DNA from: Saccharothrix sp. HUAS TT1
GTDB lineage: Bacteria > Actinomycetota > Actinomycetes > Mycobacteriales > Pseudonocardiaceae
DNA: 64,000 nucleotides
Direction of reading: 5' to 3'
Assembly: GCF_040744945.1 (NCBI RefSeq)
Contig: NZ_CP160454.1
Coordinates: 1-64,000 of the forward strand
Part shown: positions 33,231 to 55,566 of the stretch, piece by piece
Layout: each line of letters begins with the position of its first letter
How positions within the stretch are numbered: position 1 is the first letter of the stretch
Position numbers and translations under genes: made by a program
The notes under the pieces: model-generated
Seen by the model: the letters and a program-made list of their open reading frames with translations, nothing else
What the model was told of the DNA's origin: nothing
Database searches by the model: none

Positions 33231-34163
33231 ATGACCCTCCCCGCCGTGCCGCGCCTGCGGATCGACGCCCCCTCCGCGCCCATCCCACAACGGTTCGGGC
33301 TGTTCAGCGCCTCGACCGTCATCGACAACGCCGACCCGCACTCCCTGACCGGCGTCGAGTACGAGGTGGTGTGCTCGACCCAGGTCGACCCGTACCCGGC
33401 CGCCTGCCTGCCGCTGCCGCCGGACGTGTCGCGCGTCAAGCAGGCCGTGCCCACCACCGGCGTCGGCTTCGGCACCCCGTTCGGCGTGTACGCCGCCGAC
33501 GACTGCGCGCTGGGCCGCGACCCCGACACCGCACGCCGCCAACTGCGGCAACGGTTCCTCGCCGGCGAACAGACCCAGGTCGAACGGATCGTGCGCACCG
33601 GCCTGCTCGGCAACTACCCCAACCTCGAACTCGAGGCCGTGCCGATCGGCCCCGGAACCGCGCTGCCCGTGCCGACCGCGATCGGGCTGCTGGAGCAGTG
33701 GCTGTCGGTGAACTACGGCGGCGTCGGCGTCATCCACGCCCCGCGCACCGTCGCCCCCTACCTCGGCACCATGCCGGAGCTGACCATCCAGGACGGGCAG
33801 GCCGTCACGATCTTCGGGTCGGTGTGGGCGTTCGGCACCGGCTACACCGGCGACCCGCCCGACCACCCGGCGGCCGACGACGAGAACACCGTGTGGCTCT
33901 ACGCCACCCCGCCCGTCACCGTCCGCCGCTCGCGGCTGATCGAACCCGCCGGATGGGACAGCGGCGCGTTCGACATCGCCCAGAACATCGGGTTCCTGCT
34001 CGACGAACGGCTCTACGTCGTCGACTGGCCGTGCGGCACCGCCGCCGTCAAGACCACCCTGCCGCGCGTCTACGCCACACCCACGCCGGTGCCGCCCGCC
34101 CCACCCCAACCCGAACCCCCGGCGGGCGGCACCGGCGACCCCGCACGATCGGCGACCGCCTGA
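33231..34163 (+). CDS. conserved virion protein downstream of the capsid gene
   Basis: 310 residues, ATG behind AAAGGAGCGCC. It shows the phrases LTGVEYEVVCSTQVDPYPA, QVERIVRTGLLGNYPNLEL, IGLLEQWLSVNYGGVGVIHAP and VTIFGSVWAFGTGYTG. These recur in actinophage proteins encoded just after the major capsid gene; I recall the pattern but not an experimentally assigned role. A Pro-rich tail of 25 residues ends it. Probably a minor head or capsid-associated protein. The stop TGA is part of a TGACCAGC copy. Confidence 0.6.
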   Translation: MTLPAVPRLRIDAPSAPIPQRFGLFSASTVIDNADPHSLTGVEYEVVCSTQVDPYPAACLPLPPDVSRVKQAVPTTGVGFGTPFGVYAADDCALGRDPDTARRQLRQRFLAGEQTQVERIVRTGLLGNYPNLELEAVPIGPGTALPVPTAIGLLEQWLSVNYGGVGVIHAPRTVAPYLGTMPELTIQDGQAVTIFGSVWAFGTGYTGDPPDHPAADDENTVWLYATPPVTVRRSRLIEPAGWDSGAFDIAQNIGFLLDERLYVVDWPCGTAAVKTTLPRVYATPTPVPPAPPQPEPPAGGTGDPARSATA

Positions 34164-36245: not shown

Positions 36246-37190
36246 ATGCCGACACTCCGGGAGCTGCTGGACACCACGTGGCCCCTCCCCGCCGGGGAGG
36301 GGCCGTGCCGCACGTGGCCGCTCGATCCCGGCTGCGGCTGCCTGCCGGTCGCCGAACCCGCCGCCCCGCCCACGGGGGTGCCGCCCGTCGACCTCCTCGA
36401 ACCCGAACACCGCTTCGCCGCCGAAGCCGCCACGTGGGTGCTGTGGTCGCTCACCGCGGGCCGCTACGGACTGTGCGAACAGACCGTCCGCCCCTGCCCG
36501 CCACCCACCCCGATCCCCACCCACCACGCCGGCCCGCTCGGGCCGCGGCCCGTGCTGTACGGCGGCCGGTGGCTCAACCTCGGCTGCGGCTGCCCCGCCC
36601 CCGGGCCGTGCGGCTGCTCGGGCGTCGACGAACTGCCGCTGCCCGGACCCGTCCACTGGGAACCACCCGCCCCCGGCGCGTCGCCGCTGGTCACCGTGCA
36701 CATCGACGGGCAGGTGCTGCCGCCGGAGGCGTGGCGGTTCTCCCCACCCGACCGGTTGGTGCGCGTCGACGGGCAACGCTGGCCCACCGGCCAGGACCTC
36801 GCGCTGCCGCTGGACCGGCCCGGCACGTTCGGCGTCACCTACTGGACCGGCGAACCCGTCCCGCCCCTCGCACGCCGCGCCATGAGCGTCCTGACGTGCG
36901 AGTTCTACAAAGCCTGCCGGGGCGACTCGAACTGCGCCCTGCCCGAACGCCTCGTGCGCGCCGTCTCCCGCGAAGGCGTCGACTACGTGCTCATCGACCC
37001 GCTGGACATGCTCAACCACGGGCGCACCGGCATCTACGAGGTCGACCTGTTCCTGTCGATCGCCAACCCCGGCGGGCAGCGCTCCCCGTCGCTGGTGTGG
37101 TCGCCCGACCTGCCCACCCACCGCCTCGACCCCCACGGCCCGCCCCCGCCCGGCCACGCCCGCCCCGCGACCCGCCACCACCCGTGGTGA
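36246..37190 (+). CDS. head-to-tail adaptor-type protein
   Basis: 314 residues. Residues 1-110 are Cys/Pro-rich with GCGC clusters. The order VTVHIDGQVLPPEAWRF, LVRVDGQRWP, TFGVTYWTGEPVPPLA and LTCEFYKACRGDSNCALPE (parts) followed by DVLIDPLDMLNHGRTGIYEVD-like text is the pattern of actinophage head-to-tail adaptor proteins. It normally lies between capsid and major tail genes, but here it follows the tail gene. It would seal the portal vertex. Start is the first ATG after the previous stop. Confidence 0.6.
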   Translation: MPTLRELLDTTWPLPAGEGPCRTWPLDPGCGCLPVAEPAAPPTGVPPVDLLEPEHRFAAEAATWVLWSLTAGRYGLCEQTVRPCPPPTPIPTHHAGPLGPRPVLYGGRWLNLGCGCPAPGPCGCSGVDELPLPGPVHWEPPAPGASPLVTVHIDGQVLPPEAWRFSPPDRLVRVDGQRWPTGQDLALPLDRPGTFGVTYWTGEPVPPLARRAMSVLTCEFYKACRGDSNCALPERLVRAVSREGVDYVLIDPLDMLNHGRTGIYEVDLFLSIANPGGQRSPSLVWSPDLPTHRLDPHGPPPPGHARPATRHHPW

Positions 37191-37195
37191 GCCCG

Positions 37196-37789
37196 ATGAC
37201 CAGCGCCGACACGCTGCCCGACACCGTCGAGGACAAGCTGCTCTGGCCGCTGCTGCGGGTGCTGCGCACCTGCGCCGCCACCCAACTCGGCCTCGTCCGC
37301 CGTTCGGTGTGCGCGTTCCCCATCGTGGTGGGCGCCACCGCCCCGCCCGCGGATCGCTGCGACTGCACCTGCCGCCCGCCCGGATCCACCGCACAAGGCC
37401 AAGGGCAGGCGTGGATCAGGTTCGTCACCGGCCGCACCGTGCCCCGCACCGCCGCCAACGGCCGCCAACTCCCCGCCGACGTGTGCGGCGGCCTGTCGTG
37501 GGCGCTCACCGTCGAACTGGGCGTCTACCGCTGCTGGCCCACCCTCGACCAACACCGCAACCCGCCGTCGGACGCCGCCTACGACAAGGCGTCGCACGGC
37601 ATGACCCGCGACCAGGCCGCGCTGCGCCGCGCCGTCGCCTGCTGCGCGCCGCTCGCGCGCAAGAGCGTGCCGTGGAACATCGACCAAGCCGGGCCCATGA
37701 GCCCGTCCGGCGGCTGCGTCGGCGTCTACCAGACCGCCACCTTCACCCGCGACGACTGCACCTGCCCGCAAGGCGGTGAACAGCGGTGA
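37196..37789 (+). CDS. Cys-rich phage head-tail or tail-terminator-type protein
   Basis: 197 residues starting ATG-ACC-AGC-GCC (TGACCAGC copy). Features are helical residues 12-30, a cysteine cluster (DRCDCTCRPP), GQAWIRFVTGRTVP, CGGLSWALTVELGVYRCWP and ALRRAVACC. The order resembles a conserved actinophage protein next to head-tail adaptors, probably a stopper or terminator. GTGA overlap with the next gene. Confidence 0.55.
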   Translation: MTSADTLPDTVEDKLLWPLLRVLRTCAATQLGLVRRSVCAFPIVVGATAPPADRCDCTCRPPGSTAQGQGQAWIRFVTGRTVPRTAANGRQLPADVCGGLSWALTVELGVYRCWPTLDQHRNPPSDAAYDKASHGMTRDQAALRRAVACCAPLARKSVPWNIDQAGPMSPSGGCVGVYQTATFTRDDCTCPQGGEQR

Positions 37790-40140
37790 CGCCGCCGATC
37801 CCGGCACCGCCGCGCACCAGCCGCGTCCGCTCCCGCGCCCTGCACGCCGACGCCACCCCCGCGCCCGGCCGGCGCGTCACCGCCCGCATCCTCGCCGCCC
37901 CGCCGTGGACCGGCGACCGCACCAGCCGCGTGCTGGGCACCGCGACCACCTGGTCCGACCAGGCCGGGCTGTGGGCGCTGGACCTCATCCCGCACACCGC
38001 GTTCCGCGATTCCGACCACGTCCTGGTCGAGGTCGTCGAATCCGCGGCCGACGGCGACGACCCGGTCGTCCAGTTCGCCCGCGTCCCACCGTCGGACATC
38101 CCGTTGTGGCTGGGGGACCTGCTGGTCGACCCGCCGGTGCCGCCGGTGCCGCCGTGGCGACCGGTCAAGGCGCTGACCGACCTGCTCGACGTCGACCGGC
38201 TCTCGCTGGAGACCGCCAAGCCGGGCGACCACCTGCTGTTGCTGCCCTCGGGGAAGTGGGGCGCCAGCCACGGCCCGCTCGGGCTCACCGTCGTCTGGAC
38301 CGCCGACCCCGACGACGCGCACGGCGTGCGGCTCGTCGTGTCCGGCTTCGGCGGACGCGGCGCGGTGATCGACTTCGGAGACGGCACCCCGACCCGGCCC
38401 GTGACCAGCGCAGACCCGGTCCCGCACCGGTACGGCGAGATCGGCGAGTACGAGGTGCGGGTCACCGACGTGCTCTACCCGGCGTTCACCGGCACCGCCC
38501 GCACGGTGATCAAGGGCCGCGACCCGCGGGCCCACCTGTTCGTCGACAGCGACGACGACTGGGCCGTGCTGCTGTGGATCGACGAACCCGACGACGCCAC
38601 CCGCTTCACCGTCGACTGGGGCGACGGCACCCGAGAGGTGCTGCCCGGCCAGCGCCGCGTCCCGCCCCGCCCGCGCGTGCGCCACCAGTACGGGCAGGCC
38701 GCCGTGTGGACGATCACCGTCACCGATCTGTCCTCCCAGCGCACCGCCCGCCTGACCGGCACCACCGGCGACGTCGGCATGGCGTTCGTGTTCGACGACA
38801 GCGCCTACACCCCGCGCGCCATCTGCCTGTGGTTGCGCACCGGCGCGACGTGGGAGCTCTACACCGACGACGGCTCCCCGTCCCGGTTCGGGACCGTGCC
38901 CGCCTCCGGCCGCATCAGCGAGATCAAGAACGAACCGATGGACGTCGGCAGCCACCGGATCGGCGTGCGCGAGTACGTCGACGACCTGGTGCGCCGCGAC
39001 AGCCACCGCGTGGTCACCATCCCGAACCAGTGGGACTGGCGGCTCGACGTGTGGTTCGGGTGGCGGCGCGAACACCACGCACCCCACCCCGACCCGGCCG
39101 CCCCGGCGCCGCAGATCGTGCGCGTCGCCGCGAAGAACGCCCGAGTCGACTGCCTGATCACCTGGGGCGACGAGAGCCCACCGCAGACCATCGCGCCCGG
39201 CGTGGTCGCCGTGCACGACTACGCCCTGCCCATGCCCCGCGAAGGCCGCCTGCTGCGCCTGGAGGAACGCCAGGAGTTGCTGCCGCCCGGCGTGCAGCAG
39301 CGGGTGTTCAGCCGCCTGCTCGGCGAACCCCGCCACATCGGCACCCCCATGCTCAACGCCCGGTCGGCCGGCGCGGTCGACCTGCACATCGGCGGCATGG
39401 ACACCGACACCAACGGCGACTGGTACCAGGTCAACTGGGGTGAATCCGGCGCGGCCGTCGAGGACGGCGCCGCGCTGGGCCGCTGGTGGCCCGCCCTCCA
39501 CACCTACCGCTCGCCCGGCACCTACCGGCTCACGATCGACGCGCCCGGAATGCCCGAACCCGTCGTCCGCACCGTCACCGTCGTCGACTACCCGTCGCCG
39601 CTGGTCACCGTCACCGAAGACCCCGACGCCGCAGACCCCGCGCACCTGACCGCGCTGGTCACCGTCGACAACACCGCCTCCGGCGGGCCCGCCCGGGTCG
39701 ACTTCGGCGACGGAAGCCCGCCGGTCGTCGTCGACGAGCTCGGCGCGGTGTCGCACCGCTACCCCGACCCGGCGCCGGCCGCGTCCGCCACCTACTGGGT
39801 CATCGCCGCCGCGCAGGCCGACCCGACCGCCAAGGGCCGCCGCGGCGTCGCCGTCCCGTTCCCCGAAGTCCCGCCGGACACCTTGGACTTCACCGTCGAC
39901 CGCTGGGGCGACAACGCCTACGGCGTCGAGCTGGTCGTCACGCGAGGCGACCAGAGCAAGGAAATCCTGTGCGACTGGGACGACGGCACCGGCCAGAAGG
40001 TCACCGTCAACCTTCCGGCGCACCACGCCTACGTCTACGCCGCCGCCTACACGATCACCGTCGGCTACGGCGACGGCTCCGAGTCCAAGAGCCGCGTGGT
40101 GCCGATCCCGTGGGCCGCGCCCGTCGGGAGCCAGCCATGA
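37786..40140 (+). CDS. multi-PKD-domain virion protein
   Basis: 784 residues. At least six PKD-type strand turns are visible: VIDFGDGTP (about residue 195), FTVDWGDGTRE (277), LITWGDESP (459), QVNWGESGA (549), RVDFGDGSPP (639) and LCDWDDGTGQ (730). Most are followed by H-x-Y. The N-terminal 180 residues are unrelated and may anchor to the particle. PKD modules occur in surface and adhesion proteins and in carbohydrate-active enzymes. Runs of them in a virion suggest long fibres or spacers. ATGA overlap with the next gene. Confidence 0.65.
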   Translation: MTPPIPAPPRTSRVRSRALHADATPAPGRRVTARILAAPPWTGDRTSRVLGTATTWSDQAGLWALDLIPHTAFRDSDHVLVEVVESAADGDDPVVQFARVPPSDIPLWLGDLLVDPPVPPVPPWRPVKALTDLLDVDRLSLETAKPGDHLLLLPSGKWGASHGPLGLTVVWTADPDDAHGVRLVVSGFGGRGAVIDFGDGTPTRPVTSADPVPHRYGEIGEYEVRVTDVLYPAFTGTARTVIKGRDPRAHLFVDSDDDWAVLLWIDEPDDATRFTVDWGDGTREVLPGQRRVPPRPRVRHQYGQAAVWTITVTDLSSQRTARLTGTTGDVGMAFVFDDSAYTPRAICLWLRTGATWELYTDDGSPSRFGTVPASGRISEIKNEPMDVGSHRIGVREYVDDLVRRDSHRVVTIPNQWDWRLDVWFGWRREHHAPHPDPAAPAPQIVRVAAKNARVDCLITWGDESPPQTIAPGVVAVHDYALPMPREGRLLRLEERQELLPPGVQQRVFSRLLGEPRHIGTPMLNARSAGAVDLHIGGMDTDTNGDWYQVNWGESGAAVEDGAALGRWWPALHTYRSPGTYRLTIDAPGMPEPVVRTVTVVDYPSPLVTVTEDPDAADPAHLTALVTVDNTASGGPARVDFGDGSPPVVVDELGAVSHRYPDPAPAASATYWVIAAAQADPTAKGRRGVAVPFPEVPPDTLDFTVDRWGDNAYGVELVVTRGDQSKEILCDWDDGTGQKVTVNLPAHHAYVYAAAYTITVGYGDGSESKSRVVPIPWAAPVGSQP

Positions 40141-40910
40141 CCGAACCCGTCGTCACCTGGTCGGCGAACAACCTCTTCGCCCGCCGCATCCGCGTGTCCG
40201 TCGCGAACTGGATGTTCGGCTGGACCGCCTACCTCGGCGACTACCAGATCGCCGAGAACACCGGCGACCGGCCGATCGAGCACACCTACAACCGGCCCGG
40301 CTGCTACTGGCTCTACGTCACCCGACAGGGCCAGTCCACCGCGATCGGGCAGCACCAGGTCGTCATCCGCGCCGGCCGCGACCCCGACGTCACCTTCAGC
40401 CGCGACCCGCACAACCCCGCCGCGATCCGCGTGCACTGGCCCGCGCTCGACGACACCCGCGTGGTGTCGGACTACGTCGTGGACTGGACCCCGCACGACC
40501 CCGACGACCCGCCGGTCACCTACACCGACTGCCTGCCCGGCACGTTCGTCGAACGCGTCTTCCCCGACACCGCCGACCGGCCCATCACGATCACCGACCT
40601 GGCGACCAAACGCATCCGCCAGTTCACCCCGCACCTGCCCGCCCCGGCCGAGGACCCCGCGTTCAGCCTCTCCGCCACCGGCCGCGTCGTCACCCTCACC
40701 GTCCACCCCGCCGACCGGGCCGGACGGCGCCGCTCCGACGACTCCCTGCTCGTCGACTGGGGCGACGGCAGCCTCGCCCAACCGCTCGACGGCGACATCG
40801 TCACCCACACCTACCCGGCCGGCCCGCAACGCACCCACCTCGTGCAGCTGTGGCACGCCGACGCGTCCGCATCCACCACCAAGGCCATCACCGTGGGAGG
40901 ACCGCAGTGA
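40137..40910 (+). CDS. PKD-like virion protein
   Basis: 257 residues of Ig/PKD-like beta sandwiches: an opening domain WSANNLFARRIRVSVANWMFGWTAY (first part quoted), a middle one around HWPALDDTRVVSDYVVDW, and a clear PKD strand LLVDWGDGSL near residue 205 with HTYPAG. Overlaps both neighbours by stop-start, so stoichiometric production of the PKD set is likely. There is no enzymatic motif. Probably a fibre or adhesion component. Confidence 0.55.
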   Translation: MTEPVVTWSANNLFARRIRVSVANWMFGWTAYLGDYQIAENTGDRPIEHTYNRPGCYWLYVTRQGQSTAIGQHQVVIRAGRDPDVTFSRDPHNPAAIRVHWPALDDTRVVSDYVVDWTPHDPDDPPVTYTDCLPGTFVERVFPDTADRPITITDLATKRIRQFTPHLPAPAEDPAFSLSATGRVVTLTVHPADRAGRRRSDDSLLVDWGDGSLAQPLDGDIVTHTYPAGPQRTHLVQLWHADASASTTKAITVGGPQ

Positions 40911-41791
40911 ACAGCACCGACAACCCCACCCGGGACGCCGACGAGCACACCCACGACGCCGCCGGCGCGCGCGCCGACGCCGTGCTGCTGTGGGTGCCGG
41001 CCGCGCTGCGGGAACGCGGCGTCGTCCTGGCCCTCACCGGCCTCACCGGCTCCGTCGACCTCGACTTCGGCGACGGCACCGACCCCGTCCGCACCGCCGC
41101 CGGCGCACCCCCGATCCCGCACACCTACACCACCGCGGGCCGCGCCTACCTCGCCACCGCGTGGCAGGACGGCGACCTGGTCGCCGAAGCCCAGATCGTC
41201 GTCCGCGCCGGCCTCGCCCCCGCGGTCACCTTCGCCACCGCCGCCGACAACCCCAACATCGTCGAGGCCACCGTCACCGCCGACCCCGCCGACCTGGTCT
41301 CGCGCTACGAGTTCACCTGGGGCGTCGACGGACCGGTGGAAACCCTGTACGCGCCGAAGGGAACCGTGCTGCGCCACGGCTTCCACGCCGGCACCCACAC
41401 CATCACCGTGCGCGACCTGCACACCGGCCGCGTCTCCTCCACCGACGTGGAGGTCACCGACCTCCAGTACGACCCGGACTTCGACCTCTCCCAGGGCGCC
41501 GACGTCCGCACCGCCCAGCTCACCGTCACCGCCTCCGCCGAGGCCAAGGAACTGCTCATCGACTGGGGCGACGGCGAACAGAGCACCATCCCCGCCCCGG
41601 CCGACGGCGACACCAACGTCGGCCAGAAGCGGTCGCACACCTACACCCGCGACGACACCTACATCGTCCAGCTCGTCTACAGCGACGGCTCCACCGACGG
41701 CAGCTCCAAGACCGTCACCATCCCCTTCCCCGCACCGCCCGCCACCGGCGACGACACCGCCGACCGGGCGGGCAAGGCGGGCCGGCGGTGA
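40907..41791 (+). CDS. PKD-domain virion protein
   Basis: 294 residues from GTG. PKD turns VDLDFGDGTD (about 54) and LLIDWGDGEQ (about 219), each followed by an H-T-Y motif (IPHTYTTAG, RSHTYTRDD), plus a middle Ig-like domain. The last 20 residues are disordered. Third of four consecutive PKD genes, coupled by GTGA junctions to both sides. Likely a structural spacer of the tail-fibre assembly. Confidence 0.6.
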   Translation: MNSTDNPTRDADEHTHDAAGARADAVLLWVPAALRERGVVLALTGLTGSVDLDFGDGTDPVRTAAGAPPIPHTYTTAGRAYLATAWQDGDLVAEAQIVVRAGLAPAVTFATAADNPNIVEATVTADPADLVSRYEFTWGVDGPVETLYAPKGTVLRHGFHAGTHTITVRDLHTGRVSSTDVEVTDLQYDPDFDLSQGADVRTAQLTVTASAEAKELLIDWGDGEQSTIPAPADGDTNVGQKRSHTYTRDDTYIVQLVYSDGSTDGSSKTVTIPFPAPPATGDDTADRAGKAGRR

Positions 41792-43548
41792 CCAAACCGA
41801 CCAGCCGCCTGGACTGGTTCCCCGACCCGACCGACCCGCTCGCGGTGCGCGCGGCGTGGTTCGGCGCGGGCTGGCACTACACCCTCGAATGGGGCGACGG
41901 CACGCGCGACCGCCTGCTGTTCTGGCAACCGCCCCGGCGGCACGTCTACCCCGCGCCGGGCCGCTACACCGCCGTCGCCACCGCCGAGTTGGCCCACTCC
42001 AAACCGGTGTCCATGCAGGTGGTGCTGCGCCCCACGCTCACACCGCAGGCCGGATTCGAGCTGATCCCGGACACCACCCGGGTCCGCGCGACGCTGGAGC
42101 ACCACGACGAGCAGGTGCTCTACCGCGTCGACTGGGGCGACGGCCGGGTCAGCCAGCACGACGTCCACGACCTCGCGCCCGAGCACGAGTACCTGCCCGG
42201 CATCGGCACACCGACCATCACCGTCGTCGACGTCCCCGCGCGCCGCACCGGCCGGTTCACCGGCCCCGAGATCCCCGACCCGCCGCTGCCGGAGTCCGGG
42301 CCGCGCACCGAATGGCGGCTCACCACCCCGCTGGGCAGCGGCCGGCTCGACCTGCACGGCTTCCCCGCGCACACCACCGTGGAACTCGGCCGCGCCGGAT
42401 GGGGAAGCGGCAGCACCCCTCCCGGCACCGTCGTCACCGACGCCCACGGCCGCGCCGCCCGCGACTACACCCTGTGGCCGACCAACGCGCCGTGGCTGGA
42501 CGACTGGCAGTCGATCCACGTGCGCTGGACCGACCCGGACAACGGCCGGTTCCGGCAGCGGTGGCAGCCCGTGCAGGTGTGCGAATGGCTGGGCGGCCCC
42601 AAGCACGACGACACCGTGTGCCAGGAACCCAACCCGTCGCAGCGGAACTCGCCCCGCAACCCCTGCAACGAACTGCCGCTCACCGTCGACTGGGAGATCG
42701 GCTCCCCCCAGATCGTCACGCTCACCTGCGCGCCCGCCGTCGACGGCACCTGGACCGTCGAGTGGGGCGACGACGTCACCGACCAGGTCCCCGTGCAGCG
42801 GGGCGGGTTCTTCACCGCCACCCACGACTACGGCCGGCTGCGCGAGGTGTGGCCCAAGGTCACCGACCCGCGCGGGCGCGTCGGCCGCCGCCGGCTGCGG
42901 CAGATCCGACCCAAGCCCCGCACCTGGACCGACGGCTCCCTGGCGATCTTCCAGGAGTGGGAGCAGCACGTCGCCGACTGCGCCTACCTCGGCTACTGCG
43001 ACCCGTACTCGGTGATGCGCGTGGACTGCGGCGACGGCCGCCCCCTCGCCCAGGTGCACCGCCCGTCGCTGGTCTGCCCCGACCGCTCCGGCAACGGCTT
43101 CTCCTACGCCGCCCCCGGCAGCTACCTGGTCACGATCCACGGGCCGATGAGCGAACCGGTCACCTACACCCACGTGCAGAAGACCAAGAGCGGCCTCGGC
43201 GAGGCCGAGTTCCCCATCCGCGAACCGGCCAACCCGCTCACCCAGACCTTCCACGTCGGCGACGTGTCCAAGCCCGACCGGTACACCGCCTGGTTCGAGA
43301 TCACCAACAGCGCCACCGAGCCGGTGCCGTGGCGACTCGACTTCACCCTCGCCGCCCCCGCCCGCCTGGCCGACGTCCGGTCCTGGGTCGGCACCGCGAG
43401 CGTCACCGACCTCGGCGGCGGCAAGTGGCGCATCACCTGCGACACCCCGGCCCGGCCCCGAGACCCGTTCCGCGTGGAGATCACCGTCGAACCCTGCGGC
43501 AGCCCTCGCGTGTGGCCCGCCGACATCCACCTCTCCCCGCCGGGATGA
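41788..43548 (+). CDS. PKD protein with C-terminal CBM2-like domain
   Basis: 586 residues. PKD turns occur at YTLEWGDGTR (about 33), YRVDWGDGRV (113), WTVEWGDDVT (323) and RVDCGDGRP (411). Residues 480-586 look like a family-2 carbohydrate-binding module: a beta sandwich with ITNSATEPVPWRLDFTL, then W and T-rich strands and an end in PFRVEITVEPCG. CBM2 modules bind cellulose or chitin. With the downstream LPMO and chitinase this supports polysaccharide attachment by the particle. CBM assignment is by eye. Confidence 0.55.
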   Translation: MTKPTSRLDWFPDPTDPLAVRAAWFGAGWHYTLEWGDGTRDRLLFWQPPRRHVYPAPGRYTAVATAELAHSKPVSMQVVLRPTLTPQAGFELIPDTTRVRATLEHHDEQVLYRVDWGDGRVSQHDVHDLAPEHEYLPGIGTPTITVVDVPARRTGRFTGPEIPDPPLPESGPRTEWRLTTPLGSGRLDLHGFPAHTTVELGRAGWGSGSTPPGTVVTDAHGRAARDYTLWPTNAPWLDDWQSIHVRWTDPDNGRFRQRWQPVQVCEWLGGPKHDDTVCQEPNPSQRNSPRNPCNELPLTVDWEIGSPQIVTLTCAPAVDGTWTVEWGDDVTDQVPVQRGGFFTATHDYGRLREVWPKVTDPRGRVGRRRLRQIRPKPRTWTDGSLAIFQEWEQHVADCAYLGYCDPYSVMRVDCGDGRPLAQVHRPSLVCPDRSGNGFSYAAPGSYLVTIHGPMSEPVTYTHVQKTKSGLGEAEFPIREPANPLTQTFHVGDVSKPDRYTAWFEITNSATEPVPWRLDFTLAAPARLADVRSWVGTASVTDLGGGKWRITCDTPARPRDPFRVEITVEPCGSPRVWPADIHLSPPG

Positions 43549-43598
43549 CCAGCCCCACCACACGAGAACCACCGCTACGGAAGGACGAAGCGCCGTGA
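43545..43598 (+). CDS. leader mini-ORF coupled at both ends
   Basis: 17-codon frame MTSPTTREPPLRKDEAP. Its ATG overlaps the upstream PKD gene's stop, its first codons are the TGACCAGC motif, CGGAAGGA inside it is the downstream ribosome-binding site, and its stop overlaps the next GTG. Same design as the mini-ORF at 19286, in an unrelated gene context. Confidence 0.5.
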   Translation: MTSPTTREPPLRKDEAP

Positions 43599-44251
43599 AC
43601 TACGACGACACCGACGCCTACAACACCACCCCCGAACCCGTCGACGACGGCACGCAGGCCATCGCCGACGAGCCGCCGGGCGCCGGTGACGACTGGCAGA
43701 CCAAGTACAAGGAGCTGGAAACCAAGTTCAACAACCTCAGCACCGGCCTCACGAACCGGCTCAACACCCTCAACACCACCGTCGCGAACAACAAGACCGA
43801 ACTGACCACGAAGATCGGCACGGTCGAGGGCACCGCGAACTCGGCCAAAACCCAGGCCGACAACAACAAATCCAGCATCGACGCCTTCCAGGGCAGCCTC
43901 GACACCCTCACCCACCAGGTCGGCGACGCCGTCGCGGCCACCACCCTGGTCGTGCAGCGCTTGGACAACGTCGAGTCGTGGCAGAGCGCCATCAACACCG
44001 GCCTGGTCAAGGGCGTGCAGCAGGCCAAGGACTTCGCCCGCGAAGTCGGCACCTCCGCCCGCACCTACACCGACCAGACCGCCGCCGCGCTGCGCAACCA
44101 GGCCAAGCAGGACAAGGACGAACTCGGCACCGCGATCGGCAACCTCACCGAGTCCCACGAGGAGCTGGAGACCGCCTACCGCGGCCACGCCCACACCGTC
44201 GCGGTCACGGGCGAGTTCACCACCGGCCGCCCCGACGAGGAGCGCCGGTGA
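43595..44251 (+). CDS. coiled-coil fibre-like protein
   Basis: 218 residues. From residue 33 to 195 it is almost pure heptad coiled coil: ELETKFNNLSTGLTNRLNTL, TTVANNKTELTTKIGTVEGT, then TLVVQRLDNVESWQSAINTG. The sequence is unusually rich in Asn, Thr, Lys and Asp compared with neighbours. Such proteins trimerise in tail fibres or form phage whisker-like rods. The acidic N-terminus and the C-terminal HAHTVAVTGEFTTG end are similar to fibre tips. Assignment as fibre is by composition and position. Confidence 0.6.
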   Translation: MNYDDTDAYNTTPEPVDDGTQAIADEPPGAGDDWQTKYKELETKFNNLSTGLTNRLNTLNTTVANNKTELTTKIGTVEGTANSAKTQADNNKSSIDAFQGSLDTLTHQVGDAVAATTLVVQRLDNVESWQSAINTGLVKGVQQAKDFAREVGTSARTYTDQTAAALRNQAKQDKDELGTAIGNLTESHEELETAYRGHAHTVAVTGEFTTGRPDEERR

Positions 44252-45512: not shown

Positions 45513-45515
45513 GCC

Positions 45516-47234
45516 GTGGTCAACACCAGCATCCCGCGCCCCCGCGACGTGCAGTGCCACCACCACGCGGCATGGGCCTACCTCACCGTCCCGCCCAAAC
45601 GCGGCCACGGCCAGCAGGTGCAGTACAAGCCGCCCGGCGGCCCCGACTGGGAGATCCCCGGACAGCAGGGCCAGCAGTGGCTCGTGCCGATGCACCAGAC
45701 CGGCGAGACCCAGTGGCGCGCCCGCTACACCCGCGGCTCCGACAGCGGCTCCTGGACCACCGGCCGGGTGTGGATGCCCGACGGGTTCACCGAGGACGGC
45801 ACCGCCCCGCCCACCCGGCCCCGCCCGCCGCACACCCTGCTCAACCAGTGGGACGGCACCTACGAGGTCGGCCTGAGCTGGACGCAGGACGACGAGGCCC
45901 GCTCCTGGCGGGTCGTCGCCACCACCCCCGACGGGCACATCGACGTGGACACCGTCGTCGACGAGCCGAGCTTCGCCGTCGGCGACGTGCCGTTCGAGCA
46001 GGCGCTGACCGTCGAGATCCGCGCGGTGATCGGCGCCGCCGAATCCGACCCGCTCACCGCCGTGCTTCCCGCCGCCACCGGCCGGCCGGCCACCCCGACC
46101 GACCTGCGGGTCACGCCGGGGGAGACGACGTTTGACCTGGACTGGGTTCAGCCCGACGACGACACCCAGCACTGGCAGGTGATGTGGATCGAGTCCGACC
46201 TTGCCCGCCGCGACCCGCGCGCCGACCCCAGCGGCACCGAGCAGGTGTTCGGGCAGCCCACCCACACCATCACCGGTCTGAAACCGGGCACCAGCTACAA
46301 CCTCATGGTCGTCGCCCGCTGGCGATGGTCGTCCTACTCGGAGAAAGGCGCCCAGGACACCGTCTCCACCCACGGCGGCGGGCCGCGCGTGCCGCGCCCC
46401 CGGGTCGGGGAGGTCACCGCCACCAGCGTCGAGCTGTGGTGGAACGAGGACACCGGCGCGACCGGCTGGGCGGTGCGCCGCAAGCCCGGCCACTCCCGGC
46501 ACAAGCCCACCGGCGAACCCCGCTGGCTCGCCGACGACCTCGCCCCCGGCACCACCTACGAGTTCGGCGTCATCGCCGTCAACGACGACACCGGCCAGGA
46601 GTCCGACGAAGCGGTCCTGCCGGTCACCACCCTCGACGACCGGCCGCAGCCCGCGCCCGAGCCGCCGACCGGGCTGTTCTTCCACTGCATCGCCGACACC
46701 ACCGCCAAGGCCGAGTGGGACCAGCACCCCGACGTCGACGCGTGGGAGGTGTGGGTCGACGACGACCGCGAGGAAGGCGCGATCTCCACCGTCACTCCGC
46801 TGGTGAACCTGCGGCGGCTTCTGCCCGACACCACCTACACCGTCCACGTGGTCGCCGTCGTCGGCGAACCCGGCACCCCCGACTACCGGGAGTCCGAACC
46901 CGCCTCCGGCTCGTTCACCACGCTGGACACGGTGCTGCCGCCGGACGAGGACCCCGCCGGCGACCTCCCCGCACCGGACCACCTCACCGTCGCGGCCGTC
47001 TCCGACACCGAACTGGTCGCCACCTGGACGGAGGTCCGGCCACAGCCAGCCGCCGACACCCAGTTCTACGTCGTCTCCGTCGACGGCGTGCGCTGGGAAC
47101 GGGTCAACGCGCCCGTCGCCCGGTTCACCGACCTGGTGCCCGGCACCCACACCGTCCACGTCTACGGCGTGATCGACAGCAAGGTGACCGGCATCGCCCG
47201 CAAGGCCAGCAGCCCCAAGGAGGCGAGGGCATGA
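45516..47234 (+). CDS. multi-FN3 virion protein
   Basis: 572 residues made of about five fibronectin type III repeats. Examples are FDLDWVQPDDDTQHWQVMW ending in HTITGLKPGTSYNLMVVA, and VELWWNEDTGATGWAVRR ending in WLADDLAPGTTYEFGVIAVN. Two more near residues 385-470 and 485-560 end in LRRLLPDTTYTVHVVAVVG and FTDLVPGTHTVHVYGV. FN3 arrays are typical spacers of bacterial chitinases and of phage tail proteins. Directly upstream of and coupled to the LPMO gene. Confidence 0.7.
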   Translation: MVNTSIPRPRDVQCHHHAAWAYLTVPPKRGHGQQVQYKPPGGPDWEIPGQQGQQWLVPMHQTGETQWRARYTRGSDSGSWTTGRVWMPDGFTEDGTAPPTRPRPPHTLLNQWDGTYEVGLSWTQDDEARSWRVVATTPDGHIDVDTVVDEPSFAVGDVPFEQALTVEIRAVIGAAESDPLTAVLPAATGRPATPTDLRVTPGETTFDLDWVQPDDDTQHWQVMWIESDLARRDPRADPSGTEQVFGQPTHTITGLKPGTSYNLMVVARWRWSSYSEKGAQDTVSTHGGGPRVPRPRVGEVTATSVELWWNEDTGATGWAVRRKPGHSRHKPTGEPRWLADDLAPGTTYEFGVIAVNDDTGQESDEAVLPVTTLDDRPQPAPEPPTGLFFHCIADTTAKAEWDQHPDVDAWEVWVDDDREEGAISTVTPLVNLRRLLPDTTYTVHVVAVVGEPGTPDYRESEPASGSFTTLDTVLPPDEDPAGDLPAPDHLTVAAVSDTELVATWTEVRPQPAADTQFYVVSVDGVRWERVNAPVARFTDLVPGTHTVHVYGVIDSKVTGIARKASSPKEARA

Positions 47235-47893
47235 TCGCCGTCGAAGCGACCCGCAAACCCGTGCTGGAGCACGCCATCCCGCCCGGCTCGGTCAAGCACG
47301 GCTACACCACCAAGCCGGTCAGCCGCGCCTACTGGTGCGCGCTGAACAAGCCGACCGCCGGGTGCGGCGCGATCGGCAACGAACCGCAGTCCGTCGAGGG
47401 ACCGAAGGGCTTCCCCGCCGCCGGCCCGCCCGACGGGCAGCTCGCCTCCGGCGGCCTGTCCCGGTTCGGCGTGCTGGACGGCCCGACCGCGCCGGGCGGC
47501 AAGCCGTGGCCCGCGACCGCCGTCACCCCGGGGGCGCCGCTGCGCGTGCGGTGGTGGCTGACCGCGCCGCACCGCACCGCCCGCTGGCACTACTGGATCA
47601 CCCGGCAGGGCTGGAACCCCGGCGACGGCCTCACCCGCGACGCCCTGGAACTCGTCGCCAACGTCGAGTGGACCTGCCCCGACAACGCCAACTGGAAGTG
47701 CTACGTCCCGGTCAAGGACACCCACCACTTCCTGTACCTGCCGCGCGACCGCACCGGCCGGCACGTCCTGCTCGCGATCTGGGACGTCGCCGACACCGGC
47801 AACGCCTTCTACCAGGCCGCCGACCTCGACTTCGCCGCCGACTCGCAGCGGGCGGGCGACTTCGAAGGCGACGACGACGAGGTGACCGTCTGA
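47231..47893 (+). CDS. AA10 lytic polysaccharide monooxygenase (chitin-active type) in the virion operon
   Basis: 220 residues aligning along most of its length with CBP21-like AA10 LPMOs. Features are H23-G-Y with SRAYWCALNK, CGAIGNEPQSVEGPKGFP, PPDGQLASGG, WWLTAPHRTARWHYWITRQ with the second copper ligand H114, HHFLYLPRDRTGRHVLLAIW, and VADTGNAFYQAADL with the axial-site Phe193. These copper enzymes cleave crystalline chitin oxidatively using the amino-terminal histidine. Here H23 is preceded by 22 residues without a signal peptide, so the histidine brace needs cleavage after Lys22. It overlaps the FN3 gene and the GH18 gene, implying joint production. Confidence 0.85.
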   Translation: MIAVEATRKPVLEHAIPPGSVKHGYTTKPVSRAYWCALNKPTAGCGAIGNEPQSVEGPKGFPAAGPPDGQLASGGLSRFGVLDGPTAPGGKPWPATAVTPGAPLRVRWWLTAPHRTARWHYWITRQGWNPGDGLTRDALELVANVEWTCPDNANWKCYVPVKDTHHFLYLPRDRTGRHVLLAIWDVADTGNAFYQAADLDFAADSQRAGDFEGDDDEVTV

Positions 47894-50199
47894 TGATCGA
47901 ACTCACCGTCGAATGGGACGGCACCCCCACCCCGTGGTGGGGCACCGCGAAGTTCACCCTCACCAACAACACCTCCGCCACGCTCGACGACCCGCTGATC
48001 GAGTTCACCGTCCAGACGCGGCAGCAGCTCGCCAAGGACCGCGGCCTGGACTACCAGCGGCCCGACGGTTCCAACCACGTCAAGGCCCGCCTGGAGCAGT
48101 GGCTTCCCCACAAAGTCGAGGCCGGGCACAGCGTCGAGTTCACCGTGGGCATCGGGCCCGCCGACCAGCAACCCGGCATCGGATCGCTGCCCGGCGACCT
48201 GAAGGTCAACGGGCAAGGCGTCGACTCGCGCGGCGGACCCGACGCCCCGACCGGGCTGCGGGTGGTCCGCACCGGCCGCGACAGCATCGTCATCGCCTGG
48301 GACGCAGTCACCACCTACCCGCCCGGCGTGCGCGACTACTGGGTCTCCTACAGCCGCGAAGGCGGCGAACCGCAGGGCGGTTGGACCGGCGGACGCACCG
48401 ACCTCACCGCGTCCGGCCTGTTCTCCGACACCGACTACCGGTTCACCGTGTGGGCGATGGGCAGCGACGACCGCACCGGCAGGATCGCCGCGATCACCGC
48501 CCGCACCCTCGGCAACGAGCGGCCCCCGCCGCCGCCCGCCGGGTTCCCGCGCAACGCCCCGTTCGTCGACGCCGCCGCCTGGCCCACCCCACGCCTCGGC
48601 AAGATCGTCACCGGCGCCGACGTCAACGGCCTGTTCCTCGGCTTCCTCGCACCCCGCCAGGTCGATGGCCGCACCCGCGCCACCTGGGCCGGCCTCGGCT
48701 CCACCTGGGACAAGTACGAGCCCATCCCCGACAGCGAGTGCCGGCCCGGCCCCAACGACGGCCGCACCCACTCGTCGGTGGCCGCCGAGTCCGGCTACCT
48801 GAAGTGGCTGATCCAGCCCCTCCAGCAGCGTGGGACGAAGTTCGTCATCTCCGTCGGCGGGGCCTCGGCGCACCCGATCGAGGAGGCCGACGACCTCACC
48901 GCCGCCGACGCCGCGCAGGAGTACCTGGCGGTGCTCGACAACTACGGCACCAACCTGATCGACTTCGACGTGGAGGGCTCGGCGCTGGGCACCGACGCCT
49001 ACCGCCGCAAGCACGCCGACGTGCTCGCCGAGATCCGCAGGCTGCGGCCCGAGGTGCGCATCAGCCACACCCTGCCCGTCGACCGCGACGGCTGGAACCC
49101 CTCCACCATCGCCCTGATGACCGTCCTCGCCGGCTCCGACTACAAGCCCGACCTGCTGATGGGCATGTTGATGGAAATGCGCGGCAGCGAGGACTACTGG
49201 CAGATCACGCGCATGTCCGCCGAGGCGATGGTCGAACAGACCGCCGCCACCTTCGGCTGGACGACCGCGCAGGCGTGGTCCCGGTTCGGGGCCTGCCCGA
49301 TGTACGGGCAGAACTGGAACAAGCGCGTGTTCACCGTCGAGCACATGCGCTCCCTGGTCGCCTTCGCCCAGGAGAAGAACATCGCAGTCGTCTCCGGCTG
49401 GGACGCCACCCGCGACTACAACCAGGTCAACCCCGACCGTGCCTGCGAAGACACCCCGGACTGCCCGCCCCAGCCGGGCGAGGGCTCGCTGAACACCTGC
49501 ACCCGCACCCCGCAGGACCACCTCCAGTTCAGCAGGCTCGCCGCGAGCTACAACGGCCCCCGCGCCCCGCGGACCGGTGCGGCGGACGACGAGCAGGCTG
49601 CGCCGATCGGGCCCGACGCGGAAAGCGGACCGGCCGCGGAGAGCGGGGCGCACCCGGCCGACCCGGGCGGGCCGCCCGCGCCCCACGGGCTGCTCGTGGT
49701 GCCGCTCGGCCTCGGCCCGGTGCCCCACCGCGACGGCTACCTGGCCCGCGTCTCCTGGAACCCGGTCGCCTACTCCGGCGGGATGCGCGACTACTGGGTG
49801 GCCTACCGCGACGGCAAGTCGCCGCTGCGCGTCGGCGCCTGGAGCGGCGGCCGGACCGAGCTCGTCGTCAAGCGTCTCCTGCCCGGCCCGTACCGGTTCT
49901 ACGTGCAGGCGGTCGGCAACGACGGCAAGTGGGGCGCGGAAGCCAGCTACGACCTCACGATCGTCGGCAAGTTCCCCGACGAGGACGCCGACGCCGGCAC
50001 GCCCCTGCCCGTCGCTCCGGTGCACGACGACGGCCGCGACCCGGCCGGCCTCGGCCCGCACGACCCGCAGGCGGGCGATCTGCCCTCCGAGACCGCCTCG
50101 GCCGGGGCCGGGGACGCGGCCTTGCCACTGCCCACGCCGGGCTGCGACGACGTGACGGTCACCGTCAACGTCACCGTCGACGGGAAGTCGTGCCGATGA
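47893..50199 (+). CDS. GH18 chitinase with CBM2-like and FN3 modules
   Basis: 768 residues. Residues 1-110 are a CBM2-like sandwich (AKFTLTNNTSATLDDPLIEF), and 115-205 an FN3 domain. Residues 220-540 are the GH18 barrel, with the FVISVGGASAHP strand, then LIDFDVEGSAL giving D357, D359 and the acid E361. The first Asp of the canonical DxxDxDxE is Asn. MGMLMEM and IAVVSGWDATRDYN follow. Residues 580-670 form a second FN3. The C-terminus ends in VTVTVNVTVDGKSC, a beta tag shared by neighbours. No signal peptide: export would be by lysis or on the virion. Confidence 0.8.
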   Translation: MIELTVEWDGTPTPWWGTAKFTLTNNTSATLDDPLIEFTVQTRQQLAKDRGLDYQRPDGSNHVKARLEQWLPHKVEAGHSVEFTVGIGPADQQPGIGSLPGDLKVNGQGVDSRGGPDAPTGLRVVRTGRDSIVIAWDAVTTYPPGVRDYWVSYSREGGEPQGGWTGGRTDLTASGLFSDTDYRFTVWAMGSDDRTGRIAAITARTLGNERPPPPPAGFPRNAPFVDAAAWPTPRLGKIVTGADVNGLFLGFLAPRQVDGRTRATWAGLGSTWDKYEPIPDSECRPGPNDGRTHSSVAAESGYLKWLIQPLQQRGTKFVISVGGASAHPIEEADDLTAADAAQEYLAVLDNYGTNLIDFDVEGSALGTDAYRRKHADVLAEIRRLRPEVRISHTLPVDRDGWNPSTIALMTVLAGSDYKPDLLMGMLMEMRGSEDYWQITRMSAEAMVEQTAATFGWTTAQAWSRFGACPMYGQNWNKRVFTVEHMRSLVAFAQEKNIAVVSGWDATRDYNQVNPDRACEDTPDCPPQPGEGSLNTCTRTPQDHLQFSRLAASYNGPRAPRTGAADDEQAAPIGPDAESGPAAESGAHPADPGGPPAPHGLLVVPLGLGPVPHRDGYLARVSWNPVAYSGGMRDYWVAYRDGKSPLRVGAWSGGRTELVVKRLLPGPYRFYVQAVGNDGKWGAEASYDLTIVGKFPDEDADAGTPLPVAPVHDDGRDPAGLGPHDPQAGDLPSETASAGAGDAALPLPTPGCDDVTVTVNVTVDGKSCR

Positions 50200-52973: not shown

Positions 52974-53684
52974 GTGACCAGCTCGACCGAACCCGTCTCC
53001 GTGCCCGCACCCGAGGGCACCAGCAACGTCTACAACCGCATCCCCGGCCTGTTCTTCCGCACCACCGGCATCGGCGACACCGACGAGGGCAGCGGCGACA
53101 ACCCGTGGGAGACCGGCTCCTACGACTACGCCCTCATCAACGCCGGAATCGCCAACTTCAACATCCTCGAATACACCTCCGTGCTGCCCGCCGAAGCACG
53201 CGCGATCCCGCTCGCCGAAGCCAAGAAGCACTTCCACCACGGGTCCGTGCTGGAGTGCATCATGGCCCACGTCAACGGCAAGAAGAACGACATCCTCACC
53301 GCCGGCGTCGGCTCCGTCCACGTGTGGGACAAGCAGGAACACCGCTACATCGGCGGCTACGCCTGCGAATACACCAGGAAAACCACCGGAAGCACCGCCG
53401 CCAAGGAGAAAGAGAAAGCCGAGGCCGGTCTCACCAACGACCTCAAGAACCTGCTCAAGCGCCGCTACCCGAACAACGACACCGCCAAGCGCTACATCTA
53501 CGACTTCCCCGAGCACCTGGTGACCAGCGTCGAGGTGAAGAAGACGTACGGCACCGCGCTCGCGTCGCTGTGCTGGATCACCTTCGGCTACGCCGACGTG
53601 CCTACTCAGCTGTTCGACGCCGTCGAGCCGTGGCCCCGCGACCGCGACCAGGCGGGCGGCGACGACCCCGGCTCGGACGCCTGA
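52974..53684 (+). CDS. pyruvoyl-dependent arginine decarboxylase
   Basis: 236 residues from GTG-ACC-AGC (TGACCAGC copy). FFRTTGIGDTDEGS, SYDYALINAGIANFNILEY, TSVLPAEARAIPL, GSVLECIMAHVNGKKND and ILTAGVG follow the PvlArgDC family in order. The self-cleavage site is T68-S69 (usually S-S); the retained Ser69 could form the pyruvoyl group. E132 in ACEYTRK matches the catalytic Glu (GLIMEYEG). A Lys-rich helix follows, then TYGTALASLCWITF. The enzyme would turn arginine into agmatine. In a virion operon it may support polyamine supply for DNA packaging or acid tolerance. Role inferred. Confidence 0.8.
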   Translation: MTSSTEPVSVPAPEGTSNVYNRIPGLFFRTTGIGDTDEGSGDNPWETGSYDYALINAGIANFNILEYTSVLPAEARAIPLAEAKKHFHHGSVLECIMAHVNGKKNDILTAGVGSVHVWDKQEHRYIGGYACEYTRKTTGSTAAKEKEKAEAGLTNDLKNLLKRRYPNNDTAKRYIYDFPEHLVTSVEVKKTYGTALASLCWITFGYADVPTQLFDAVEPWPRDRDQAGGDDPGSDA

Positions 53685-54390: not shown

Positions 54391-55566
54391 ATGGTCGACC
54401 TGTACTACGGCATCGACATCTCCAGCCACAACGACATCGACGACTGGGCCGCCGTGCGCGGCAACAACATCACCTACGCCTCCGTGAAGACCACACAGGG
54501 CGACTACTACATCAACCCCAAGCACCAGGGCCAGATCGACGGGGCGCGCAACGCCGGCGTCCTGCCCGGCGCCTACCACTTCGCCGACCCCAACACGCCC
54601 GTGGCGCGCAACATCGACCACTTCGTCAACATCTCCCGCAGTCGCGGCGTGTTCGACACCGGCTCGTTCATGCCCATGCTCGACGTCGAGGACAGCGCGC
54701 CCGACGGCATCCACTGGAACGCCTGGACCGCGAACACGTTCATCCCGCAGTTCATCCGCGGGCTGCGCGACCGCACCGGGCAGGGCCTGGTCTCCGTCTA
54801 CGCCAGCCTCAACGACTGGCGCGTCCTGCTGCGGCCCGACGAGTGGGCCGACGACCAGGTGCGGCTGTGGGTCGCGGTGTTCAACGGCGACCCCGGCAAC
54901 CTCCAGGGCCACCAGGACGGCCGGGTCGCGCTGCACCAGCACACCGCCCACGGCAACGTGCCCGGCGCCCGCGGCTACATCGACCGCAACGTCACCGTGA
55001 ACGACTACAGCCTCGAACAGCTCACGATCGGCAGCGTCACCGCCCCGCCGCAGCCCGGCCCCGCCCCGCAGCCCGTCCCGACTCCCGGCGGCTGGGTGCC
55101 CTACTCGGTGAAGGCCGGCGAGAACCTGTCGGTGCTCGCCGCCCGGTTCGGCACCAGCGTCGACGAGCTGGTGCGGGTCAACGCGATCCGCGACCGCAAC
55201 CTGATCTACCCCACGCAGGTGCTCATGGTCCCCGGCGGCACCGGCGGCGGCGACGGGTCGTTCCCGCACCGCATCAACCCCGGCGAGACCCTGTCCGAGC
55301 TGGCCGCCCGCTTCGGCACCAGCGTGGACGCCATCGTGGCGCTCAACGGCATCCCCGACCGCGACTACGTCCGCACCGGCGACTGGATCAGCATCCCCGG
55401 CTCCGGCGGCGGGGGTGCGCCCGCCGGGCGGGAGTACCAGGTCAAGCCCGGCCAGTACCTCGGCGGCATCGCCCAGGAACTCGGCGTCACCGTCGACCAC
55501 CTGGTGCGGCTCAACAACATCCAGAACCCCGACCTCATCCACCCCGGCGACCAGCTGCGCTACTGA
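54391..55566 (+). CDS. GH25-LysM endolysin
   Basis: 391 residues. Residues 1-205 are a GH25 muramidase: YYGIDISSHNDIDDW with D9, FMPMLDVEDSAPDG with catalytic D98/E100, SVYASLNDW and ALHQHTAHG. A Pro/Gln linker then leads to three LysM repeats (about 235-280, 290-335, 345-391), each with Y/R-x-V-x-x-G-E/Q-x-L and F-G-T-S-V-D. It would cleave the peptidoglycan glycan backbone for host lysis or be carried as a tail lysin. ATG chosen as the first residue of the domain; the upstream region lacks a good Shine-Dalgarno. Confidence 0.85.
   Translation: MVDLYYGIDISSHNDIDDWAAVRGNNITYASVKTTQGDYYINPKHQGQIDGARNAGVLPGAYHFADPNTPVARNIDHFVNISRSRGVFDTGSFMPMLDVEDSAPDGIHWNAWTANTFIPQFIRGLRDRTGQGLVSVYASLNDWRVLLRPDEWADDQVRLWVAVFNGDPGNLQGHQDGRVALHQHTAHGNVPGARGYIDRNVTVNDYSLEQLTIGSVTAPPQPGPAPQPVPTPGGWVPYSVKAGENLSVLAARFGTSVDELVRVNAIRDRNLIYPTQVLMVPGGTGGGDGSFPHRINPGETLSELAARFGTSVDAIVALNGIPDRDYVRTGDWISIPGSGGGGAPAGREYQVKPGQYLGGIAQELGVTVDHLVRLNNIQNPDLIHPGDQLRY

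What the first reader, a model, noticed from the sequence alone, without database searches (positions are those of the whole stretch)
47231..47893. An AA10 LPMO encoded inside a virion operon without a signal peptide
The protein keeps CBP21-like motifs end to end, including both copper histidines (H23, H114) and the axial Phe193, but starts 22 residues before the essential N-terminal histidine. AA10 enzymes normally expose it by signal-peptidase cleavage. Here the residue before H23 is Lys22 (SVK-HGY), so a trypsin-like protease acting after lysis could create the active N-terminus. Such an enzyme would be made inactive in the cell and matured outside. An LPMO as part of a phage structural module is to my knowledge not an established phage component.
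Basis: partly seen in the sequence, partly recalled or inferred. Interest (0 to 1): 0.9.

Follow-up and report, generated by a model that had tools for sequence, protein, structure and literature searches.

The report
Phage LPMO lacking a signal peptide
A large phage-like element in a soil actinobacterium carries a copper enzyme of a kind that cuts tough polysaccharides, built in a form that should stay switched off until a short front piece is clipped off, and dozens of relatives share the same likely clipping point.

Summary
Window 47231-47893 encodes a 220-aa AA10/LPMO_10 protein (E 2e-39) with His23, His114 and Phe193, no visible signal peptide, and Lys22 before His23. It has a good ribosome site and overlaps the stop of an fn3 gene. 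The element is a 200-kb contig with terminase, portal, capsid, connector, tape-measure and endolysin genes.

New here: 45 of 206 listed relatives form a signal-peptide-less AA10 group. In 39 of 45 the residue before the copper histidine is Lys/Arg (4 Tyr, 2 Gly); in 160 ordinary AA10s from the same lists it is Gly/Ser/Ala. His23, His114 and Phe193 are invariant in the 45. This favours activation by a basic-specific protease; no cleavage is shown.

Corrections: the gene lies in an accessory block between head-tail connectors and endolysin, missing from a related prophage. An fn3 gene precedes it in 3 of 3 loci read. Asn replaces the usual substrate-facing aromatic, so chitin activity is doubtful.

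Best reading: a phage-made inactive LPMO, released at lysis, free or on the particle, and matured outside to act on envelope or matrix glycans. Virion presence, cleavage and activity are untested; no structure prediction could be run.

The parts
47231..47893 (+). AA10/LPMO_10 protein without visible signal peptide, 220 aa
47217..47223 (+). Shine-Dalgarno-like AAGGAGG, 7 nt before ATG 47231
   Evidence: read directly
47231..47296 (+). 22-residue N-terminal extension ending in Lys22 (codon 47294-47296), proposed pro-peptide
   Evidence: function inferred
47297..47299 (+). His23 codon, equivalent of mature residue 1 of AA10s
47378..47380 (+). Asn50 codon; Trp/Tyr at this place in 150 of 160 ordinary AA10s held
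47570..47572 (+). His114 codon, second copper ligand
   Evidence: role recalled
47807..47809 (+). Phe193 codon, axial position
   Evidence: role recalled
45516..47234 (+). fn3-domain protein, 572 aa, upstream partner of the LPMO gene
47893..50199 (+). fn3 protein, 768 aa; match to central tail fibre J (phrog_31, E 2.4e-11) lies over the fn3 stretch
43595..44251 (+). 218-aa protein with weak matches only (DUF1664, tail families)
37786..43548 (+). four overlapping PKD-like genes at the start of the accessory block; only the first passes Pfam's PKD cut-off
36246..37190 (+). head-tail adaptor (phrog_783)
37184..37789 (+). phrog_810 protein, last shared gene before the accessory block
34329..36236 (+). 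major tail protein (phrog_792) with Big_2 domains
33231..34163 (+). phrog_779 protein
30096..33146 (+). major head protein (phrog_777)
26712..29402 (+). head morphogenesis (MuF-like) / portal-family protein
52974..53684 (+). pyruvoyl-dependent arginine decarboxylase-like protein, same direction, inside the accessory block
54391..55566 (+). GH25 + LysM endolysin; right border of the accessory block
62709..63803 (-). ParB-like partition protein

Best explanation
It is a phage-encoded AA10 LPMO made in the cytoplasm as an inactive precursor. Shown: the gene lies in a phage-like element, follows an fn3 gene whose stop codon overlaps its start, keeps the copper-site residues, and has a short polar N-terminal extension ending in a basic residue. 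Inferred: the histidine, buried in the chain, cannot form the copper brace in the cell; at lysis the protein leaves, free or attached to the particle through its fn3 partner; a trypsin-like protease outside cuts after Lys22 and frees His23; copper binds; and the enzyme oxidatively cuts a beta-1,4-linked glycan of the actinobacterial envelope or surrounding matrix, helping release, spread or adsorption.
For: Family and residues. Basic residue before His in 39 of 45 group members against 0 of 160 other listed AA10s; other N-terminal positions of the group are 7.4% basic, at least 5 Lys/Arg exchanges and 3 gains or losses of the charge on the group's tree, so charge rather than identity is kept, and position -1 is the least variable of the 12 before His. 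Phage context: capsid, connector, tail and endolysin genes in the window; terminase, portal and tape measure elsewhere on the 200,347-bp contig. fn3 gene directly upstream in 3 of 3 loci read, with start/stop overlap in all 3; 5 of the 9 fn3 proteins found (the window's own included) have the same longest-contig length as an LPMO of the group: 200350, 122033, 50413, 40685, 4778. In L011 the next gene encodes an Amidase_2 protein. Host trypsins. An AA10 (LpmP) reported to bind peptidoglycan and help its degradation in Streptomyces coelicolor: PMC9040799, abstract and Discussion read.
Against: No protease, cleavage, copper, activity or particle data. Six of 45 group members have Tyr or Gly before His, all in one 12-member subgroup, so a trypsin site is not universal; one of them is P0125, one of the three loci with readable context. 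Asn50 replaces the aromatic residue kept in 150 of 160 ordinary AA10s, and only 18 of 45 in the group keep it, so substrate is uncertain. The block is dispensable: a relative with 55% identical capsid protein lacks it in the 36 kb read. 4 of the 9 fn3 proteins share no contig length with a listed LPMO. No trypsin-family match lies on the element. A host search for a tip-glycan oxidase domain (PF09118) was inconclusive, no control rang.
Confidence: 0.5

Rival explanations
1. A glycan-binding adhesin, never cleaved and not catalytic: the AA10 fold is used as a binding module on the particle, and the basic residue before His helps contact the glycan.
For: No cleavage is shown; fn3 and PKD-like neighbours suggest adhesion.
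Against: Both copper histidines and the axial Phe are invariant in 45 of 45, unexpected for a pure binder, while the substrate-facing aromatic is often lost.
Confidence: 0.2
2. Cleavage happens inside the cell by a phage maturation protease during particle assembly, so the enzyme leaves already active and virion-bound.
For: The head protein 26712-29402 has secondary matches to head-maturation-protease families; some prohead proteases cut after Lys (recalled).
Against: I identified no clear protease gene among the proteins scanned; I did not scan every gene of the contig. Positions next to the cut vary except for the charge.
Confidence: 0.12
3. A lysogeny trait rather than a lytic one: the protein reaches the outside without a signal peptide by a non-classical route and helps the host use chitin.
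For: The host chromosome has 8 other AA10 matches, so it looks like a polysaccharide degrader.
Against: Of 7 chromosomal AA10s fetched, 6 show a signal peptide and the seventh could not be judged, so one without would be odd; the gene sits among late genes near an endolysin.
Confidence: 0.08
4. Mis-called start, or a captured host gene decaying after loss of its signal peptide.
For: It lacks a signal peptide.
Against: Good ribosome site, start/stop overlap in 3 of 3 loci read, no leader upstream in frame; 45 diverse group members with invariant copper residues.
Confidence: 0.02

Closest known systems
Secreted AA10 LPMOs of the CBP21 / 5ftz type
   Same: Sequence family, copper histidines, axial Phe and Ala, EPQSVEGPKGFP segment; E 1e-41 to 5ftz and 1.6e-38 to CBP21 2bem.
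   Different: No signal peptide, 22-residue polar extension ending in Lys, Asn at the substrate-facing aromatic position, phage gene neighbourhood.
LpmP of Streptomyces coelicolor (PMC9040799; abstract and Discussion read)
   Same: AA10 in a filamentous actinobacterium; reported to bind peptidoglycan and facilitate its degradation.
   Different: A developmental gene of the bacterium itself; no phage link in what I read. Sequences not compared here.
Fusolin / GP37 of insect viruses (listing abstracts, and passages of PMC8615602)
   Same: Virus-encoded AA10 proteins acting on a glycan barrier.
   Different: Viruses of insects, spindle-forming; not compared by sequence here.
Virion-associated phage depolymerases (PMC10653864 listing abstract)
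   Same: Proposed role: opening a surface polysaccharide for the phage.
   Different: Known ones are hydrolases or lyases in tail spikes (recalled); this would be oxidative and need proteolytic activation.

Membership tests
AA10 / Pfam LPMO_10 | Sequence match to the family over its full length | tested here: met
   E 2e-39, profile 1-183 of 183, 136.6 bits against cut-off 23
AA10 / Pfam LPMO_10 | Two copper histidines plus axial Phe and Ala | tested here: met
   H23, H114, F193 invariant in 45 of 45; A112 in at least 90%
AA10 / Pfam LPMO_10 | Catalytic histidine at the N-terminus after signal-peptidase cleavage | tested here: not met
   No signal peptide in protein or upstream frame; so filed as a sequence member, not as a canonical secreted LPMO
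AA10 / Pfam LPMO_10 | Aromatic residue before EPQS (usual in this subgroup, not universal) | tested here: not met
   Asn50; Trp/Tyr in 150 of 160 comparison proteins, 8 of the 160 unresolved
AA10 / Pfam LPMO_10 | Copper-dependent oxidative cleavage | not testable with these tools
   Needs assays
Phage virion component | Gene in a phage-like genome among late genes | tested here: met
Phage virion component | Conserved in the core structural module | tested here: not met
   No match in the related prophage stretch L198-L199 nor in 21 plasmid and viral stretches L125-L145 that share the adaptor (stretches, not whole records)
Phage virion component | Protein present in particles | not testable with these tools
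   Needs mass spectrometry
Trypsin-activated zymogen | Basic residue at the predicted cut throughout the group | tested here: inconclusive
   39 of 45; 33 of 33 outside one 12-member subgroup

The most novel reading that the evidence does not exclude
Actinobacterial phages carry an oxidative depolymerase zymogen on their particles: an LPMO held inactive by a pro-peptide, docked through an fn3 partner, and switched on by the target bacterium's own secreted trypsin-like proteases, so that it opens envelope glycans only where live hosts are secreting.
Probability: 0.25. Interest if true: 0.93.

Novelty: new variant of a known kind. Interest (0 to 1): 0.74.

Why it matters
LPMOs are known as secreted enzymes whose active site is completed by signal peptidase. 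A phage-linked set that drops the signal peptide and mostly keeps a basic residue before the copper histidine suggests another way to make that active site, and an oxidative tool for phages against glycan barriers. It also gives a direct test: cut after the basic residue and ask whether activity appears. If the substrate is peptidoglycan or a tip glycan, it would link to the reported wall role of an AA10 in Streptomyces (PMC9040799).

Tried and rejected
Host gene or mis-called start: rejected. Recent capture from the host's own chromosome: unlikely; the best chromosomal AA10 fetched scores E 1.4e-30 against the group profile, while two secreted Embleya AA10s read in the same call score E 4e-62 and 5.4e-62.

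Isolated phages: 8 of 50,697 records matched P0001, 6 labelled Listeria and 2 Enterococcus, all without annotation; the two read (L204, L205) are unverified clone contigs with a signal peptide and Ala before His. P0076 as query gave the same 8 records. Viral contigs: 4 loci; only L011 belongs to the group, L012-L014 have signal peptides. The fn3 alignment found the same contig as L011 and one weak match. Scans that found no relative.

Streptomycetes: P0015 matched 245 of 392 Streptomyces genomes at E 1e-50; 29 of the 30 loci fetched were readable and had Gly/Ser/Ala before His and a hydrophobic leader; the rest were not read. Profile A5 matched 13 of 391 genomes of the order at E 1e-66; their N-termini were not read in that call. 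Family of the host: 69 of 390 genomes matched A2 at E 1e-50; the scores 340.6 and 276.8, then 224.7 bits, single out 2 of 390 as group members; not every lower match was read.

PF09118 in the host: uninformative. The binomial value ignores kinship and is not used. The 45 were set apart by a score gap (251 against 231 bits), not by signal peptide. Searches matched 870 and 2385 proteins, but only the best 120 of each are listed; 206 different ones were held, and one (P0190, no N-terminus) was dropped. P0013 has a hydropathy peak of 1.49, above the 1.3 mark used for the others, and was judged by eye to have no leader. The pattern that locates the copper histidine first caught an earlier His in P0001 and P0002 and was corrected; the window's own locus still shows that artefact, 5 of 144 loci were unreadable, and some places were fetched twice. 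The 90-protein tree used 45 of the 160 ordinary proteins, drawn at random; one of them, P0170 on a long branch, fell among the group and starred branches force 2 changes, so a single origin is not shown.

Full report
The gene. Window 47231-47893 translates to 220 aa. Residues 23-199 match Pfam LPMO_10 over the full profile, E 2e-39. Of the 25 distinct PDB sequences matched, the best are AA10 chains whose residue 1 aligns with His23 (5ftz, 2yow, CBP21 2bem). His114, Phe193 and Ala112 sit at the positions of the second copper ligand and the axial residues (roles recalled). AAGGAGG lies 7 nt before the ATG, which overlaps the upstream stop as ATGA. No signal peptide is visible, and none appears if the frame is read further upstream. 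PHROGs has no match at E 0.01.

The element. The window is bases 1-64000 of contig C2, 200,347 bp, in an 8.7-Mb, two-contig genome. The window holds head morphogenesis/portal, major head, head-tail adaptor, major tail and endolysin genes and a ParB-like gene. Elsewhere on C2 are a tape-measure protein at 109631-112525, a minor tail protein, a portal at 152746-154515 and a terminase large-subunit match at 151059-151886. An FtsK-like gene hints at a plasmid side. I call it a phage-plasmid-like element; that it works as a phage is not shown.

Position within the phage. By a simple gene caller the LPMO gene is in a run from 36246 to 50732 in which 10 of 12 junctions overlap by 1-7 bases. A related prophage, L198, shares the capsid protein (55%), phrog_779 (51%), adaptor (44%), phrog_810 (43%) and the GH25 endolysin (48%), but tblastn finds no counterpart of the PKD-like, fn3 or LPMO genes in the 36 kb read, and only three short genes separate phrog_810 from the endolysin there. 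So the LPMO belongs to an accessory block of about 16 kb. The viral contig of L011 (91 kb; capsid protein 65% identical over residues 316-849) has the block: PKD-like genes, fn3, LPMO, then an Amidase_2 protein. Viral contig L125 has the head genes but no match to PKD 2-4, fn3 or LPMO in the stretch read.

A partner gene. The gene directly upstream encodes fn3 domains and shares its C-terminal part with the upstream genes of L011 and L151; the stop/start overlap is ATGA, GTGA and GTGA in the three.

The family pattern. Two protein searches matched 870 and 2385 proteins and listed the best 120 each, 206 different ones in all. A score gap separates 45, this one included. Their N-termini before His are 10-29 residues long and show no leader, P0013 being judged by eye. 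The residue before that His is Arg in 29, Lys in 10, Tyr in 4 and Gly in 2; in the 160 others it is Gly 89, Ser 51, Ala 20. Among 139 readable AA10 loci out of 144 from genomes and records, some fetched twice, 136 had Gly/Ser/Ala (the Gly count includes the prophage L096); the others were the window itself (pattern artefact) and one Asn and one Arg in signal-peptide-bearing viral-contig loci. On the group's own tree at least 5 Lys/Arg exchanges and 3 gains or losses of the charge are needed, and position -1 varies least of the 12 before His. The six non-basic cases all fall in one 12-member subgroup. In a 90-protein tree 44 of 45 sampled ordinary proteins form one supported side of a branch, and one long-branched protein falls with the group. 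Conserved: H23, H114, F193 in 45 of 45. Changed: the aromatic residue before EPQS, kept in 150 of 160 ordinary proteins (8 unresolved), is kept in 18 of 45 here (1 unresolved) and is Asn50 in this protein.

How it most likely works. The histidine brace uses the amine of an N-terminal histidine (PMC10952591, abstract start in a listing). The encoded product cannot provide it, so either it is cut or it is not an LPMO in function. A retained copper site with a mostly retained basic residue before it favours cutting by a trypsin-like protease. The host chromosome has 18 trypsin-family matches and C2 none; 5 of 8 fetched carry Asp in the D-x-C-x-GDSGGP context (rule recalled). With late genes and an endolysin around it, release at lysis is the natural moment. 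The target is open: chitin in the soil matrix, a cellulose-like tip glycan, or peptidoglycan. LpmP of S. coelicolor, an AA10, is reported to bind peptidoglycan and facilitate its degradation (PMC9040799, abstract and Discussion).

Literature. Full-text searches pairing LPMO with phage, prophage, tail, viral auxiliary genes, phage-encoded, virion or actinophage listed no paper on a phage-encoded LPMO, judged by titles and abstract starts; for only 20 of 36 papers were listed. One prophage paper mentions an LPMO gene beside a chitinase gene in a bacterial genome (PMC11788074, one passage). No paper held the three terms LPMO, propeptide and histidine brace. The library holds open-licence papers only.

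Verdict. The activation model is the best reading but rests on comparison alone, and the 'structural module' wording should be softened to an accessory late-gene block with an fn3 partner.

Noticed in passing
52974-53684 (+): A pyruvoyl-dependent arginine decarboxylase-like protein (PvlArgDC, E 3.3e-27) lies between the LPMO and the endolysin; role unexplained.
   Followed up: partly
L151:1049-2476 (-): In the 5.7-kb contig of a related genome the LPMO gene is directly followed by a flavin amine-oxidase-like gene (PF01593, E 4.1e-36), a possible peroxide source for an LPMO.
   Followed up: partly
L013:10001-10504: A viral-contig AA10 with a signal peptide has Arg before the copper histidine, a few residues behind the likely signal-peptidase site, so it too might need a second cut.
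   Followed up: no
30096-33146 (+): The major head protein is 1016 aa; the relatives listed match only from about residue 294-383 on, so the long N-terminal part is unexplained.
   Followed up: no
50748-51566 and 51647-52546 (+): Two neighbouring genes both match phrog_31252 (unknown function), suggesting a duplication in the accessory block.
   Followed up: no
G000:C2:103000-116500 and 150400-154600 (outside the window): Structural genes of the element are scattered in several places on the 200-kb contig, on both strands.
   Followed up: partly
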